A DNA stretch of 64,000 bases. Source: Tachypleus tridentatus (Eukaryota; Arthropoda; Merostomata; Xiphosura; Limulidae). The notes under the pieces were generated by a model. The model was not told where the DNA came from, did no database searches, and saw only the letters and a list, made by a program, of their open reading frames with translations. Position 1 is the stretch's first letter, and every line of letters begins with the position of its first letter. Positions 9,896 to 63,546 of the stretch are shown here, one piece after another. The DNA lies in NCBI RefSeq assembly GCF_004210375.1, contig NC_134829.1, forward strand, positions 53,374,107 through 53,438,106. The letters are read 5' to 3'. The translations under genes and the position numbers were made by a program.

Positions 9896-10804
9896 TACGA
9901 GGGCTGTTCAAAATATACGCGGACTGACGTCATAAAACAAAATGTACTTTATTTAGAAGTTACAGGTTTGAGACCCCTTCAGAGTACTCTCCTTCCCAAC
10001 GCACACACTTATCTCAACGGTGTTTCCACTTGTTGAAACAGTCCTGGTACGCTTCTTTTGTAATGTCCTCCAGCTCCTTCGTCGTATTTGCCTTAATCTT
10101 GGGAATCGTCTCAAATCTTCTTCCTTTCAAAGGTCTTTTGAGTTTGGGGAATAAGAAAAAATCGCAAGGAGCAAGGTCAGGTGAGTAGGGGGGGGTGAAG
10201 AACAGTAATTGAGTGTTTGGCCAAAAACTCATGAGTTCTGAGGGCTGAATTTCGCAGCAACGCGGTGCATCTTCAATTTTTCGGCCAAAATCTCGTAACA
10301 AGATCCAACTGATATCCCACACTCTTCAGCAAGCTCCCTGACAGTCAGACGTCGATTTGCCCGCACCAGGGTGTTGCTTTTGTCGACGTGTGGGTTGTCA
10401 GTTGACGTGGAAGAACGTCCAGGACGCTCATCATCTTCAATGGACTGTCGACCATCCTTAAAACGTTCATGCCACTTGAAACATGCCGTACGCTTTGTAG
10501 CAACATCACCGTAAGCCGTGTTAAGCATAGCAAAAGTTTCACTCACAGATTTTCCAAGTTTAACACAAAATTTCACAGCATATCGTTGCTCCTTCAGGTC
10601 ATTCATTCTGAAATCCGCTAAACGAAAAAATCGCACTTCACTTAAAACCGCATAGCTAATACACAAATGAAGATATCTGCAATCAGGAAATGGCGTCGTA
10701 ATCAGCTGATCTGTGCAAACCTAGCGACACCAAGCGGATTCCCCTGGAACCAACTGAAGCCGCGCAATACAAACAGTCCGCGTATTTTTTGAACAGCCCT
10801 CGTA
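9896..10804 (-). mobile_element. Internally deleted mariner element (909 bp)
   Basis: Inverted terminal repeats of 30 bp, with a single mismatch visible, lie at 9896-9925 and 10775-10804. Both begin TACGAGGGCTGTTCAAAA when read inward. TA dinucleotides at 9894-9895 and 10805-10806 fit the target-site duplication of Tc1/mariner transposons. A typical mariner is about 1.3 kb, so roughly 400 bp are missing. The loss is internal and removes the first part of the catalytic core, leaving a non-autonomous but end-complete element that could in principle have been mobilised in trans. Confidence 0.93.
9960..10606 (-). pseudogene. Mariner transposase remnant
   Basis: The reading frame starts at 10606 (MNDLKEQRYAVKF). 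It covers the N-terminal helix-turn-helix region, including ACFKWHERFKDGRQS, GRSSTSTDNP and LTVRELAEECGISVGS. It reaches AAKF and then shifts frame near 10250. The C-terminal part (PPYSPDLAPCDFFLFP, then KGRRFE) follows in another frame. This part holds the third catalytic aspartate of the family's DD34D triad, but the region with the first two is absent. A TGA interrupts HRWDK-like sequence at about 10010, and the ancestral stop is probably the TAA at 9960-9962. Recognition rests on residues that are conserved across mariner transposases. The protein cannot be active. Confidence 0.92.
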
Positions 10805-24480: not shown

Positions 24481-24930
24481 TACTAAAGATTTAATCGAAA
24501 CACAATTGCATAACAATTGAAGCATGACAAGTATGTTCTACTTGTAGTTTTGAACGGAAACACAGTAAACATGTTATAACAATAAGTGAAACATGACAGA
24601 TGTGTACCAGTTGTAATATGAATTGAGATACAATTAACAGATTTCAACGATAACTGAAATATGGCGTGTTCCGCTTGGAGTTTAAAGAGAAACACTGTAG
24701 GACTAAGAACATATATTTTATAAAGAAACATCACACTAAAAAATTGAATAACCCCTTGAAGATTTGTCACATAAGCAAATTACGTGAAACACTACGATTG
24801 GGTCACGTTTTGTTTGCTTCCCGCCTGTAATAATCTAGTTCTGATTCTTTACTAATTCAACTGAAAGTTAAATGGTCATAAGGTTCACAACACTTAAGAT
24901 GAGCGATATTATTTATTTATACAGAGAGGG
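24481..24930. other. Spacer, possibly very old repeat units
   Basis: Weak echoes such as GAAACACAGTAAACATGTT persist to about 24,600. There is no gene. Confidence 0.4.
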
Positions 24931-25196
24931 TTTGTTTGTTTGTTTCGAATTACGCGCAAAGCTACGCGAGGGCTATCTGCGCTAACCGTCCCTAATTTAG
25001 CAGTGTTAGAGTAGAGGGAAGGCAGCTGGTCATCACCACCTACCGCCATCTCTTGGGCTACTCTTTACAAACGAATAGTGGAATTAACCGTCATATTATA
25101 ACGCCCCACGGCTGAAAGGGCGAGTATATTTAGTGCGACGGGATTCAAACCCGCGACCATTGGATTACGAGCCGAGTGCTTTAACCATTTGACCAT
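24931..25196 (-). mobile_element. SINE1 copy
   Basis: Antisense SINE1 runs from TTTGTTTGTTTGTTTCGAAT to the head end TTTAACCATTTGACCATATG. Confidence 0.9.
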
Positions 25197-25198
25197 AT

Positions 25199-25276
25199 GT
25201 GTGCGTGATTTTCTTACAGCAAAGCCACATCGTGCTATTTGCTGAGTTCACCGAGAGGAATCGAACCCACACCTGG
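25199..25276 (-). mobile_element. SINE2 fragment abutting the PLE
   Basis: ATTTTCTTACAGCAAAGCC, GAGTTCACCGAGAGGAATCG and AACCCACACCTGGC are antisense SINE2 tail and B-box sequence. It is cut off where the PLE 3' end begins. Confidence 0.75.
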
Positions 25277-25278
25277 CT

Positions 25279-28200
25279 ATAACAGAGAGGGACACAGATT
25301 AACGTCTCAGATTTCTGCAAATTTTACCTTCAATAGCTAAAGCAAAAATATAAAGAATTACATCTGTTCTGTGTAGGTAATTAAATCACATTGCTGTATC
25401 ATCGACAATTTAATGAAAACGAAAACACATTGAAAGTATATGAATAACTATAACACTAGTGTACACATTAAAACGTACATTTTAACGAGATTGGGTGTTA
25501 TGCAGTGTTGATGAAAGTTGTTTGATATGGAGAGTTTCTTTAATCAGTAACGCCAGATCACTGTTGACCTTCAAAAGTAAACTGAAACTTCGTAGGTCAA
25601 TGTTCTGTTTGTACACTATGTTGATGTGCAGAGGAACATAGGGTTATTCTTTTTTTTGATTGTGTATGTTTGTTGTTTTTTGTAGGAGACTCGTACATGT
25701 TCATCACATCTAACTGTTAGATTGCGTTTGATCTTGCCAACATAGCAGGTCTTCAAGTCTTCAAACGAATAACTAGATACAAGACTAAACTAAAGAGAAA
25801 CGGGTCTTGGGTAGAAGCAAAGTTCTGTGTTAAAACTAATCAGAGATAAACTTGGGATAGTAATGATAAATTACAAAAAACAAAAGTACATGGTAAGTTT
25901 TGGTACAGTTGGGTAAATTAGTAAGTTTCTGAGTTAAGAAGGTATTGCTAGTTTTTGTAATATATGTTGTGTGTAGCCATTACGGTTGAGTTAAGATACA
26001 AGAAACACAGGTTGTAAGAGTTGTTTAATAATTGTATTAAATTATCTTTTTTATATATCAACGGGATAAAACTGCCAAGTTGGATAAGAAGGCCAGTAAA
26101 TATTTTCTGTGTATTAATGTTCCATGTCCACTAGTGTAGCAACTAATGAGGATCTTTAAAGAACACAGATTATTACTATGTTCAATTTCGTATGTGAATT
26201 TGAAGGCAGGGTGCAATGAGTTCATGTATGTTAAAAAACAAGCAATGATCCTTAAAATAATGTGTTGTCACCATATCTTGTGTAACAAATGTGTTGTCAC
26301 CATATCTTGTGTAACAAAAGTGTTGTCTGCATATCTTCTGTAACAAAAGTGTTGTCTGCATATCTTCTGTAACAAAAGTGTTGTCTGCATATCTTCTGTA
26401 ACAAATGTGTTGTCACCATATCTTGTGTAACAAAAGTGTTGTCACCATATCTTGTGTAACAAATGTGTTGTCACCATATCTTCTGTAACAAAAGTGTTGT
26501 CACCATATCTTGTGTAACAAAAGTGTTGTCACCATATCTTCTGTAACAAATGTGTTGTCACCATATCTTGTGTAACAAAAGTGTTGTCACCATATCTTGT
26601 GTAACAAATGTGTTGTCACCATATCTTCTGTAACAAAAGTGTTGTCACCATATCTTGTGTAACAAAAGTGTTGTCACCATATCTTCTGTAACAAATGTGT
26701 GTTGTCACCATATCTTCTGTAACAAAAGTGTTTGTCACCATATCTTCTGTAACAAATGTGTTGTCACCATATCTTGTGTAACAAAAGTGTTGTCAAGCAT
26801 ATCTTCTGTAACAAATGTGTTGTCACCATATCTTGTGTAACAAAGTGTTGTTGTCACCATATCTTCTGTAACAAAAGTGTTGTCTGCATATCTTCTGTAA
26901 CAAAAGTGTTGTCTGCATGTTGTCACCATATCTTCTGTAACAAAATGTGTTGTCAAATTCTATATCTTGTGTAACAAAAACCATATCTTCTGTAACAAAT
27001 GTGCATATCTTCTGTAACAAAAAGTGTTGTCTGCATATCTTCTGTAACAAAAGTGTTGTCTGCATATCTTCTGTAACAAAAGTGTTGTCCATATCTTCTG
27101 TAACAAAAGTGTTGTCACCATATCTTCTGTAACAAATGTGTTGTCACCATATCTTGTGTAACAAAAGTGTTGTCACCATTCTGTAACAAAGTATCTTCAT
27201 ATCTTCTGTAACAAAAAGTGTTGTCTGCATATCTTCTGTAACAAAAGTGTTGTCACCATATCTTCTGTAACAAAAGTGTTGTCTGCATATCTTGTGTAAT
27301 AAAAAAGGTTGTCTATATATCTTTCGTAATAAAAGTTCTGTTTACATACAATCTGTAATAAAAGATTTGTCTACATATCATCTGTAATAAAAGATTTGTC
27401 TAGTACCATCTGTAATAAAAGTTTTGTCTACATACCATCTGTAATAAAAGATTTGTCTGCATACCATCTGTAATAAAAGTTTTGTCTACATACCGTCTGT
27501 AATAAAATATACGTTTTGTCTACATAACCGTCTGTAATAAAAGTGTGGTCTACATACCATCTGTAACAAAAAAGTTTTGTCTACATACCATCTGTAATAA
27601 AAGATTTGTCTACATACCATCTGTAATAAAAGATTTGTCTGCATACCATCTGTAACAAAAGATTTGTCTACATACCAAAGATTTGTCTACATACCATCTA
27701 TAATAAAAGTGTGGTTTAACCATTTGTAAAGATTTGTCTACATACTATTTATAATAAAAGTGTGGTTTACATTCCATTTGTAATAAAAGTGGTCTAGTGT
27801 TCTCTACATATCTTCTGTAACAAAAGTGTGGTCTGCATACCTGTTTACTGTGATAAAAGTGTTGTGTATATACGTTCTGTAATATGAATGTCGTCTACAT
27901 ATCGTTTGTAATAAAAGCGTAGTCCACATATTTTCTGCAATAAAGTGTCGTCCACACATATTCTGTAAAGGATAGGTCTGAAATCAGGGACATATGTCGA
28001 GCCATTTCTGTTCGTGATACTAAAAAATATATTAGCTAATGTTGGACCCAGTGGAAACCCATCGCTACGCCATCTATTTGTTCACTATTGAAAAGGATTT
28101 TAAATCTTTGGTTGTAAGAATCAACATGGTATTAATATAAAGCTTAACTGAGCCATTCAGTGAAACTTATTACATCGAAGCTCAGATGGAAGATTATATC
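25279..28200 (-). pseudogene. Penelope-like element, RT/GIY-YIG copy split by minisatellite
   Basis: Read on the minus strand, this is a 5'-truncated PLE polyprotein. It begins near 28,130 with TTKDLKSFS-like sequence and then QIDGVAMGFPLGPTLANIF (28,080-28,024), a reverse-transcriptase box conserved in the family. Two compensating frameshifts then pass through HEQKWLDICP to DFRPILYR and the catalytic box read here as CVDDT (about 27,970-27,940). There the frame is interrupted by 1.7 kb of 29-bp repeats. Beyond them the same protein resumes with IFTGLLIQLGSFIPLIYKK and YNLCFLYLN (about 26,100-25,970). The GIY-YIG endonuclease part CYVGKIKRNLTVRCDEH follows at about 25,748-25,692. The 3' end lies near 25,279. 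Many stops show it is dead. Confidence 0.85.
26262..27960. repeat. 29-bp minisatellite made of the PLE YVDD box
   Basis: About 58 units of 28-29 bp are present. On the plus strand each contains GTGTTGTC, CATATCTT and TGTAACAAAA. On the minus strand the same unit reads as CYRRYGDNTF, CYRRYADNTF or YVDK, recognisably the reverse-transcriptase box (L/C)YRRYVDDTF of the surrounding PLE. Units nearest the RT sequence (27,880-27,960) are closest to that box, for example YKRYVDD at about 27,905. Units become more homogeneous toward 26,262. A 29-bp unit cannot keep frame, so this is repeat expansion and not a repeated protein domain. Indel noise is concentrated at 26,700-27,200. Confidence 0.9.
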
Positions 28201-28209
28201 AGTGAACCC

Positions 28210-29062
28210 AATTTCAAATATAAACATGCCTTGTAACCTGCCTGTGTTCCTCGTATCTTAAGTTACACTCAATAATTTCTCTTGTACAGAATACTGTAAA
28301 CCTTAACCTCTACCCCCACAACGTTTATTACAAAAATTACTAATACTTTTCTAACTAAGGAATTCACAAACTTACTTAATTACCAAAACCTACCATATTG
28401 CTCCTGTCCTCCATACGCTGGTGAACAAAGCTTGACTTTAAAAAGTCAAATTAAAGGTGCAGTTTATCGTTATTAAACTCAAGATCATTTTAGACTAGTT
28501 TTTAAACTTACCAAACTTTTCCCCGACTAAAGATCTTCCCTCATTTCTTTTTGTTCTAGTCTTGAATACAGTTACACGTGTGGAGATTGAAAGACATGCT
28601 ATGTCGGCAAGATCAAACGCAATCTAATAGTTAGAGGCGATGAACGTGTAAGAGTCTATACGAAAAAAACAACAAACATACACACTCAAAAAAAGAATAG
28701 CCCTTATGTTCCTCTGCACATCAACATAGTGTAAAACAGAGCACTGACTTATCAAATTTCGGTATTCTCTTCAAGGTCAACAGTGATCTGAAGTTACTTA
28801 TTAAAGAAACACTCCATATAAAACAACTTTCATCACTAACACCCAGTCTTCAGCTGGGCTGCACGTGTTTAATATGTACACTATTTTGTACATTTATTCA
28901 CATATTTTCTATGTGTTTTTGTTTTGATTAAACTGTCGTTGACAGAACAGTGTGGTTTAGTTATTTACGTTGTACTGATGTAATTCTTTATATTTTTACT
29001 TTAGATACTGAAAGTGGAACCTGCAGATATTTGAAACGTTTATCTGTATCCCTCTCTGTTAT
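28210..29062 (+). pseudogene. Second Penelope-like copy, 3' part, opposite orientation
   Basis: On the plus strand CNLPVFLVS (about 28,230) and later PYCSCPPYAGEQSLTLKSQ, then HFRLVFKLTKLFP, lead into YSYTCGD and CYVGKIKRNLIVRGDER (28,597-28,655), the GIY-YIG domain. One frame runs for about 90 codons with only a few stops. The 3' part contains LKLLIKE-type sequence and ends near CTCTCTGTTATA at 29,062. Compared with the minus-strand copy, it is a diverged reverse complement (28,440-29,062 against 25,279-25,870), so the two copies form a long imperfect inverted repeat. Reverse-transcriptase sequence is absent from this copy. Confidence 0.83.
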
Positions 29063-29240
29063 AAATAAATAAATTGTTCACTTTAAGTGTTGTTAACCTT
29101 GTGATACTCGAACTACGGTTTCCTTTGAATACATTAATTGCTACAGAAGGGTTTTGGTAACTGGTGGGCTTTTGAACTTTATTTATCGAAAATAGAAATA
29201 TTTTTACGATTAGGATTATTTTGTGGATGTGACTAAATTT

Positions 29241-31537: not shown

Positions 31538-32037
31538 NNNNNNNNNNNNNNNNNNNNNNNNNNNNNNNNNNNNNNNNNNNNNNNNNNNNNNNNNNNNNNN
31601 NNNNNNNNNNNNNNNNNNNNNNNNNNNNNNNNNNNNNNNNNNNNNNNNNNNNNNNNNNNNNNNNNNNNNNNNNNNNNNNNNNNNNNNNNNNNNNNNNNNN
31701 NNNNNNNNNNNNNNNNNNNNNNNNNNNNNNNNNNNNNNNNNNNNNNNNNNNNNNNNNNNNNNNNNNNNNNNNNNNNNNNNNNNNNNNNNNNNNNNNNNNN
31801 NNNNNNNNNNNNNNNNNNNNNNNNNNNNNNNNNNNNNNNNNNNNNNNNNNNNNNNNNNNNNNNNNNNNNNNNNNNNNNNNNNNNNNNNNNNNNNNNNNNN
31901 NNNNNNNNNNNNNNNNNNNNNNNNNNNNNNNNNNNNNNNNNNNNNNNNNNNNNNNNNNNNNNNNNNNNNNNNNNNNNNNNNNNNNNNNNNNNNNNNNNNN
32001 NNNNNNNNNNNNNNNNNNNNNNNNNNNNNNNNNNNNN
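31538..32037. other. Assembly gap of exactly 500 N
   Basis: A run of 500 Ns, a placeholder size, sits at the left edge of the 53-bp array. The true array length is therefore unknown. The long open frame of undetermined residues over it is meaningless. Confidence 0.99.
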
Positions 32038-62344: not shown

Positions 62345-63367
62345 TTAATGGTCAGTTGTGTAACTTTTCAGGTGAATTACTTGACGCAATCTCTCCTCAT
62401 AGCCATCCATGATCGTTTGATAGTACTCGACTGGTATTTTCTTCCATTCTTCTTCACAGAAGGCCTCCAACTCTTGTAAGTTTTTCGAATGACGCTGATG
62501 AACCCTGGTCTTCAACTCATGCCAAACGTTTTCAATTGGGTTAAGATCGGATGACTACGATGGCCACTCCAGAACGCTTATATGGTTCCTCTGCAACCAG
62601 GATTGCACATATTTCGATGTGTGCTTAGGGTCATTGTCGTGCTGGAAGATCCAACGACACCCAAGCCGCAAGTTCCGAGAATCATTTTTGATACAAGTGC
62701 CTAATTTATCAACGTTCTCTTCTTTTTTCATGATTTCGTTGACGCGGTGAAGGCTGCATACACCAGAAGAGCTGAAGGAACCTCAGAGCATGATCGAGCC
62801 ACCTCCGTGTTTACCTGTAGGGACGGTGTTCTTTGGATGATTTCGATGCCCCTTCTTAGGGAAAATATAGCGAACATCATTGTGGCCGAAAAGCTCGATT
62901 TTAGTCTCGTCTGATCAAAGAATACTCTTCCAATAAGTAAAGGGTTTATTTACATGCTTTCTTGCATACCTCAGTCGTGCTTCTAAATGAACAGGCTTTA
63001 AATATGGAGTTCTACGAGGACGGCATGTTTTGAACCCAGAAGAGCGTAACATGTTCGTAACTGTAGAGGTGCTTACTTCAACCCCAGTTTCCCTTACCAG
63101 TTTTTGTATGTCATTACGTGTTAAACGAGGGTTCCTACTAACTTTTCTGAGAACCTTCCTCTTGGTTCTCTCTGGAATTTTGGTGGGGCGTCCGAAACGA
63201 GGGAGGTTAGCAGTTGATTCCGTAAGCTTAAACTTGGTAATTATGCTTTGAACAGTAGATTTCGGCACATTAAGTTGTGTAGCAATACCGGAACGAGACA
63301 CACGAGACTTGTATTTTACAATAATTCGGTTTTTTAAATCACTGGACAGTTGTTTCCTGTTCGCCAT
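62345..63367 (-). pseudogene. Tc1-type transposase, 340 codons, three nonsense codons
   Basis: The frame starts at 63,367 (MANRKQLSSDLKNRII) and is open in one frame to TAA at 62,345-62,347, the usual length for Tc1 transposases. It has no frameshift. Order: a helix-turn-helix with SGIATQLNVPKSTVQSII, a hinge FGRPTKIPERTKRK, then the catalytic core. D153 (SDETKIELFG), D244 (FQHDNDPKHTS) and E279 (LNPIENVWHELK) form the DD34E triad with exactly 34 residues between the last two. TGA at codon 151, TGA at codon 195 (in MLxGSFSSSG) and TAG at codon 271 (WPSxSSDLNP) break it. The start MANRKQ fits the family better than the upstream in-frame Met at 63,418. Confidence 0.96.
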
Positions 63368-63546
63368 GATGACCAAGCAGATAATGACGGAGACGGCGCT
63401 AAATTGCCGGAAGTACATTTTTTTGCTGGCTAAATTCCAATAATTATGAACCCAGTGTCTAGTTCTTGAATGGTATAATGTAGTTTATTCGCCAAACTAA
63501 ACAAATTTTTTACGGGAATATCAGTTTTTTCACACTTTCTGAACTG

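What the first reader, a model, noticed from the sequence alone, without database searches (positions are those of the whole stretch)
26262..27960. Minisatellite built from the YVDD catalytic box of a Penelope-like reverse transcriptase
The minus strand enters the array with DFRPILYR followed by a VDD box and leaves it with downstream Penelope RT sequence (IFTGLLIQLGSFIPL). Between them about 58 units of 29 bp each still read as variants of CYRRYVDDTF (YGDN, YADN, YVDK). A piece of one RT active site has therefore been amplified about 58 times inside the element it came from. Units nearest the RT are the most ancestral, and those toward 26,262 are homogenised. This catches a satellite at birth with its source still attached on both sides.
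Basis: partly seen in the sequence, partly recalled or inferred. Interest (0 to 1): 0.9.

Follow-up and report, generated by a model that had tools for sequence, protein, structure and literature searches.

The report
Tandem array grown from retrotransposon gene
Inside a dead Penelope-type retrotransposon of what is probably a horseshoe-crab genome, the short stretch that coded for the enzyme's active site has been copied dozens of times head to tail, and the same stretch has been amplified in other copies of the element, which helps show where such repeats come from, though repeats of this general kind are already known.

Summary
On the minus strand a 29-bp array (26,262-27,968; 57 units of 22 nt or more) splits a decayed Penelope-like element (PLE) just after its YVDD codons, with motif B on one side and the post-YVDD region on the other. 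Other PLE copies in the genome show the empty site, and the units match that segment far better than shuffles (0 of 2000).

The array is not 'at birth': its units are diverged, and a near-identical (about 99%), inverted second copy of the locus, 4.2 Mb away and possibly a misplaced haplotype, has 87 units. Units next to the RT are more diverse, not more ancestral; the far side is homogenised. The segment is not special to this element copy: two other PLE copies (C12, C7) carry arrays with the same unit junction, and an array on C4 has no clear PLE flanks. Array-bearing copies do not group in weakly supported flank trees, so repeated birth at one site is favoured, not proven.

Transposon-derived minisatellites are known; a Penelope RT active site as source, with empty sites preserved, is a good new member. 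The region is 31-34% tandem repeat, so array growth is common here.

The parts
26262..27968 (-). 29-bp tandem array derived from the YVDD segment of the PLE reverse transcriptase
   Evidence: TRF; unit parse; shuffle test
27969..28160 (-). PLE reverse transcriptase upstream of the array: motif B (IDGVAMG, PLGPTLANIFF) to DFRPILYR, frameshifted
25950..26261 (-). PLE reverse transcriptase downstream of YVDD (MNSLHPAFKFTYEIEHSNNLC, IFTGLLIQLGSFIPLIYKK), frameshifted
   Evidence: E=7e-7 to residues 242-289 of the intact PLE frame L056
25500..25800 (-). probable remains of the GIY-YIG endonuclease part (CYVGKIKRNLTVRCDEHVRVSY)
   Evidence: translation; read by eye; Pfam gives no GIY-YIG match for this decayed piece
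25278..25971 (-). 3' part of the PLE, one arm of a broken-up inverted repeat
   Evidence: the repeat finder (pairs I1, I3, I4, I5, I7, I9; 76-88% complementary)
28317..29104 (+). inverted copy of the PLE 3' part on the other side of the array, as in PLEs with inverted pseudo-LTRs
   Evidence: same pairs, and I8, 75%; PLE architecture in PMC3846280 (passages)
24931..25277 (-). SINE-type insertion in the PLE end, flanked by CCCTCTCTGTTATA and CCCTCTCTGTATA
   Evidence: flanks read; pair I8 beyond it shows the element running on; 24929-25197 recurs many times in the region; that it is a SINE is recalled from its tRNA-like part
31538..32037 (.). 500-N gap near which the homology to the second copy of the locus stops (31480)

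Best explanation
In a decaying Penelope-like retrotransposon the 29 bp that coded for about YRRYVDDTFI (segment ACAGAAGGTATGTAGACGACACTTTTATT in array-free copies, between CCTTT and ATTTTTCACAATAAGG) were duplicated in tandem. A 3-bp microhomology (TTA) sits at both ends, so replication slippage or microhomology-mediated repair is the likely first step (inferred). The array then grew by further slippage or unequal exchange, in steps that also copied blocks of about 13-14 units (seen in the second copy of the locus), and the side away from the upstream RT was homogenised (shown). The array is a non-coding minisatellite with no likely function; its length differs between the two near-identical copies of the locus (57 and 87 units). 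The same segment gave arrays with the same junction in at least two other PLE copies, most simply because the local sequence makes this duplication likely (inferred).
For: Empty sites: of the 28 loci other than the C5 pair cut out of the RT-flank search, 23 run past YVDD without an array (about 15 after near-duplicates are merged; L022 has a deletion there, L030 some extra bases), 1 has a 29-bp array (L026) and 4 cannot be judged (L031, L044, L047, L048) (read by eye). PLE identity: with L056 (nearest named relatives two Tachypleus tridentatus proteins, 87% and 85% identical over 83% and 66% of the query; also 'Putative penelope-2', 31%). Unit origin: 0 of 2000 shuffles for each of four consensuses. 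The arrays leave into PLE sequence: L049 TTATTTTTTTCAG, L057 TTATTATTTTTTCAG, L009 CATTATTTTAAGG. Block duplication (by eye), homogenisation. Junction profile (29 of 50 junction windows): array loci, which include the training rows, match across the junction; array-free PLE copies that matched did so over 14-22 of its 40 positions.
Against: The microhomology is only 3 bp, shorter than the 5-10 bp of the slippage model quoted in PMC6947457, and was read by eye. PLE copies are so diverged that the ancestral bases are uncertain. The exit in C5 lacks some bases of the PLE continuation. The trees that argue for repeated birth are star-like with low support. Array density in other PLE-bearing loci (1.30 per 10 kb) is below that of the C5 region (2.20 and 2.33), so PLEs are not shown to be array-prone.
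Confidence: 0.85

Rival explanations
1. One birth, then spread: the 29-bp duplication arose once in an old PLE lineage, was copied with the element (in trans, since the RT frame would be broken), and each copy later expanded or shrank; array-free relatives lost it by contraction to one unit.
For: Same unit junction in C5, C12, C7 and C4; contraction restores the exact single copy, so losses leave no scar. One origin is not strictly ruled out (least forced changes 1).
Against: Array-bearing copies form one group in 0 of 200 bootstrap trees (C5 pair with C12) and 0 of 1000 (C5, C12, C7); C5+C12 alone in 24 of 1000. C12 sits beside array-free L046 (88/81) but beside array-free L023 (support only 36), so its place is not stable; C7 sits beside array-free L040 (72). 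A 29-bp duplication shifts the RT frame at its active site.
Confidence: 0.3
2. A ready-made minisatellite was inserted or copied by conversion into the PLEs at this point.
For: An array with no clear PLE flanks exists on C4 (L050, 11 units).
Against: The unit is the PLE's own sequence at exactly the place where it stands, and PLE sequence continues on the far side. Units of C7, C4 and C12 differ (between loci 0.73-0.78, within 0.75-0.83; C5 not included).
Confidence: 0.05
3. The window's array is partly an assembly product: the left 31.5 kb is a second haplotype in the wrong place with poor consensus near the gap, so the irregular units and the count of 57 are unreliable. (Compatible with the best explanation.)
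For: Window 1-31480 matches C5:49250951-49217782 inverted, 98.8-99.7% in pieces outside the arrays and 97.3% in the last 3.5 kb, stopping near the N gap; the likeness continues left of the window. Mismatches are 0.15-0.71% in three stretches tested but 2.1% and 1.5% in the two next to the gap. The second copy has 83 of 87 units at exactly 29 nt against 34 of 57 here.
Against: The array stands in both copies with like edge units, and arrays with the same junction exist on C12, C7 and C4. A true inverted duplication would look much the same.
Confidence: 0.5

Closest known systems
Minisatellites born inside Alu, B1 and MaLR elements, with the slippage model of Haber and Louis (as given in PMC6947457, passages seen)
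   Same: Short unit taken from the element in place and expanded. Titles in that review's reference list report like origins of two mouse minisatellites in LTRs and a VNTR family from B1 elements.
   Different: Here the source is a PLE and the segment coded for the RT active site; the microhomology is 3 bp, not 5-10.
Satellites from tandem repeats within LTR-retrotransposons (Lathyrus sativus, PMC7004042, abstract and outline; pea Ogre 3' UTR, PMC9659126 section 6)
   Same: Short arrays inside a retroelement that grow into longer arrays.
   Different: Those retrotransposons with their short arrays are dispersed; here there is no sign that the array travels with the element.
Satellites related to transposon reading frames (CR1 and LINE-1 ORF II, GAG-like; PMC9659126 section 6 read)
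   Same: Coding sequence of an element as source.
   Different: Here the source still flanks the array on both sides and empty sites are seen in other copies.
Tetris TIR-220 of Drosophila virilis (PMC4079207, passages)
   Same: Internal tandem repeats of an element as building blocks of satellite-like arrays.
   Different: Foldback DNA transposon, about 220-bp units in its terminal repeats.
Asparagine-rich insertions in Penelope elements of a bdelloid rotifer (PMC3846280, passages)
   Same: Extra, repeat-rich sequence inside a Penelope coding region.
   Different: There in frame and between domains; here out of frame, at the active site, in decayed copies.

Membership tests
Penelope-like element (host of the array) | PLE-type reverse transcriptase with YVDD | tested here: met
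   tblastn of the intact genomic PLE frame L056: downstream side E=7e-7; upstream side E=0.14 in the window and 6e-5 in L009. Pfam found no RVT_1 in the decayed pieces.
Penelope-like element (host of the array) | C-terminal GIY-YIG endonuclease | tested here: inconclusive
   Read by eye in the window; Pfam negative on the decayed piece. The relative L056 has it at E=2.8e-4, 21.6 bits, just under the cut-off of 22.6.
Penelope-like element (host of the array) | terminal repeats in direct or inverted arrangement (pseudo-LTRs) | tested here: met
   Inverted arms 25278-25971 and 28317-29063, 76-88% complementary in pieces.
TE-derived minisatellite | tandem units homologous to a segment of a transposable element | tested here: met
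   0 of 2000 shuffles for each of four consensuses.
TE-derived minisatellite | expansion in place, with empty sites in other copies | tested here: met
   23 of 28 other loci array-free at the site, 1 with array, 4 not judged.
Minisatellite origin by slippage between flanking repeats (Haber and Louis) | 5-10 bp direct repeats flanking the founding unit | tested here: not met
   Only TTA (3 bp) at both ends in array-free copies, read by eye.
Satellite DNA (many long arrays away from the source) | arrays of the unit dispersed in the genome | tested here: inconclusive
   Patterns with up to 3 mismatches found arrays on C5 (two copies), C12, C7 and C4; the tool calls such counts lower bounds, and more diverged arrays would be missed.

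The most novel reading that the evidence does not exclude
The YVDD-coding stretch of this PLE family is a sequence-determined birth site for minisatellites: the same tandem duplication, to the base within the 3-bp ambiguity left by the microhomology, happened independently in at least three PLE copies (C5, C12, C7), with a further array on C4, while 23 of 28 other loci examined keep the empty site. That would be direct evidence that a specific portion of a transposon preferentially seeds tandem repeats, for which a 2022 review saw no conclusive evidence (PMC9659126, section 6).
Probability: 0.5. Interest if true: 0.65.

Novelty: new member of a known kind. Interest (0 to 1): 0.5.

Why it matters
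Where minisatellites come from is often lost because the founding sequence is gone. Here other PLE copies act as controls (one protein search gave 151 matches, with 5801 first-look candidates of which 150 were scored): the same segment is seen single-copy, as 6 diverged units, as about 8-9 units with a fresh homogenised end, and as 57-87 units. That opens the first duplication, its breakpoints and the direction of growth to direct test. It gives no new gene or function.

Tried and rejected
Rejected: a coding role of the array (29-bp steps shift the frame; 13-19 stops per frame in the window array, 21-24 in the second copy). Rejected: RT-side units as ancestral. Rejected: 'satellite at birth' (diverged units; second copy). 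Not shown: an excess of arrays in PLEs (arrays per 10 kb 2.20 in the window, 2.33 in C5:49.178-49.268, 1.30 in 23 other loci). Led nowhere: Pfam on the window's decayed pieces (one chance match) and on decayed copies (one chance match); protein search with L039 (no hit at E 0.001); PDB sequence search (two chance matches). Searches of the paper library listed no report of a PLE-RT minisatellite, judged from titles and abstract starts of the listed papers. C4 flanks: matches of a dispersed repeat only and one weak tblastn match in the right order and strand (E=0.006, 34% over 32 residues), so a very decayed PLE there is not excluded. Other pattern matches: C8 (L059) about 2 units without clear PLE at the junction, C10:106019610 (L058) a single match, C10:25125525 (L051) an array-free PLE of another kind, L047 and L030 perhaps remnants of 1-2 units, C10:156998368 not inspected; none counted as arrays.

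Full report
What is there. The window lies in a eukaryotic assembly of 2.17 Gb in 205 contigs, at C5:53374107-53438106. The nearest named proteins to an intact PLE frame of this genome are from Tachypleus tridentatus (87% and 85% identity), so a horseshoe crab is likely; the species was not established. On the minus strand a tandem array of 29-bp units covers 26262-27968.

The array splits a reverse transcriptase. Upstream on the minus strand stand frameshifted remains of motif B and of the approach to YVDD; downstream stand remains of the post-YVDD region, then IFTGLL...FIPLIYKK and a GIY-YIG-like piece. Pfam does not recognise these decayed pieces. An intact PLE frame of the same genome does show what they are (L056, 526 aa; RVT_1 E=1.7e-10, GIY-YIG E=2.8e-4, slightly under Pfam's cut-off): by tblastn it aligns to the window's upstream side up to residue 233 (E=0.14; E=6e-5 over residues 168-206 in the second copy L009) and to the downstream side from residue 242 (E=7e-7). 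The element also has the inverted arrangement of its end known from Penelope elements (PMC3846280, passages) and carries a SINE-type insertion in its end.

The unit is the element's own active-site DNA. A search of the genome with the RT flank gave 36 matches, 30 of them cut out as loci. Two are the C5 locus itself. Of the other 28, 23 run past YVDD without an array (about 15 once near-duplicates are merged), one has a 29-bp array (L026 on C12) and four cannot be judged (read by eye). Four unit consensuses score 25 to 44 (medians over 17 array-free copies), while shuffled units average 13.4-13.9 and never reach the observed value (0 of 2000 each, on 6 of the 17 copies). The founding segment lies between CCTTT and ATTTTTCACAATAAGG, with TTA at both ends.

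The array is not new. The left 31.5 kb of the window is found again, inverted, at C5:49217782-49250951, at 98.8-99.7% identity in pieces outside the arrays and 97.3% in the last 3.5 kb; the likeness continues beyond the window's left edge (99.5% and 97.8% in two samples) and stops near the N gap of the window. This may be a true duplication or a second haplotype placed wrongly. The second copy has 87 units, 83 of exactly 29 nt, and shows a block of about 13-14 units three times (by eye). Mismatches between the copies rise from 0.15-0.71% to 1.5-2.1% next to the gap, so part of the irregularity of the window's array may be consensus error. Homogenisation towards 26,262 is real in both copies (within-block identity 0.70 to 0.95 in the window, 0.79 to 0.93 in the second copy), but identity to array-free PLE is nearly level along the array, so RT-side units are more diverged from each other, not closer to the ancestor.

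It happened elsewhere too. On C12 a different PLE copy has 6 diverged units at the same place. On C7 a third copy has about 8-9 units (by eye; TRF counts 6.2 copies of 27 bp), the last ones 27 bp long and nearly identical, leaving into the normal PLE continuation. On C4 there are 11 units with no clear PLE in about 1.1 kb on either side, apart from one weak match. Junction patterns with up to 3 mismatches found arrays at these places; a handful of other matches were single, too short, or not inspected. The reversed-pattern control gave 0 and 0, 1 and 1. In C5, C7 and C4 the 3' half is the more homogeneous, in C12 it is not. In trees of the flanks the array-bearing copies never form one group (0 of 200; 0 of 1000), but support is low and the neighbour of C12 differs between the two trees. 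Further PLE-derived arrays come from the following RT segment: 77 bp in seven near-identical loci on C2, and 49 bp on C10 (PLE likeness tested for L037 and L047, with a composite peptide).

How common is this. Arrays of three or more copies cover 33.7% of the window and 30.7% of the 90 kb around the second copy, but 5.0% of 23 other loci. Array growth is therefore ordinary in this region, and the PLE is special mainly because its other copies reveal the starting sequence.

Reading. Most likely a short microhomology-mediated tandem duplication inside a dying PLE was followed by slippage or unequal exchange (shown: unit origin, place, block duplication, homogenisation, length difference; inferred: the first step and its cause). 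Repeated birth at the same junction is favoured over one old birth with spread, at roughly two to one in my judgement.

Known or new. Minisatellites and satellites from transposons, including from reading frames, are documented (PMC9659126, section 6 read; PMC6947457 and PMC4079207, passages; PMC7004042, abstract). No report of a Penelope RT as source appeared in the listings; the main texts of the two reviews PMC9659126 and PMC6947457 do not hold the word Penelope. I file it as a new member of a known kind; the recurrence at the same junction is its most interesting side.

Noticed in passing
window 1-64000: About a third of the window (33.7%) is tandem repeat: units of 30, 35, 36, 44, 49 and 53 bp among others, up to about 130 copies; their sources were not traced.
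   Followed up: partly
window 1-31480 and C5:49217782-49250951: Inverted second copy (mostly 98.8-99.7% identical) of the left half of the window on the same contig, stopping near the 500-N gap: duplication or misplaced haplotype.
   Followed up: partly
L033-L038 and L041 (C2), L047 (C10): Other PLE copies carry 77-bp and 49-bp arrays made from the RT segment just after YVDD; the C2 hits near 156 Mb recur at 27-42 kb steps.
   Followed up: partly
window 10014-10720, minus strand: Broken mariner-type transposase (HTH_48 'Mos1', E=1.2e-8 on 10229-10720; the piece 10014-10325 gave no Pfam match).
   Followed up: partly
window 62915-63484, minus strand: Tc1 / Sleeping Beauty-type transposase N-terminal part (HTH_Tnp_Tc3_2 E=6.4e-20, HTH_SB E=9.9e-13).
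   Followed up: partly
window 24931-25277: SINE-type insertion inside the PLE end with a near-perfect target duplication; most of it (24929-25197) recurs many times in the region. It may be two SINE pieces side by side.
   Followed up: no
L057:1193-1430: A second array (50 bp, 4.7 copies) downstream of the YVDD array on C7; source not traced.
   Followed up: no
L056 (C11:76260400-76262400): Open 526-aa PLE frame of another PLE family in the same genome.
   Followed up: no
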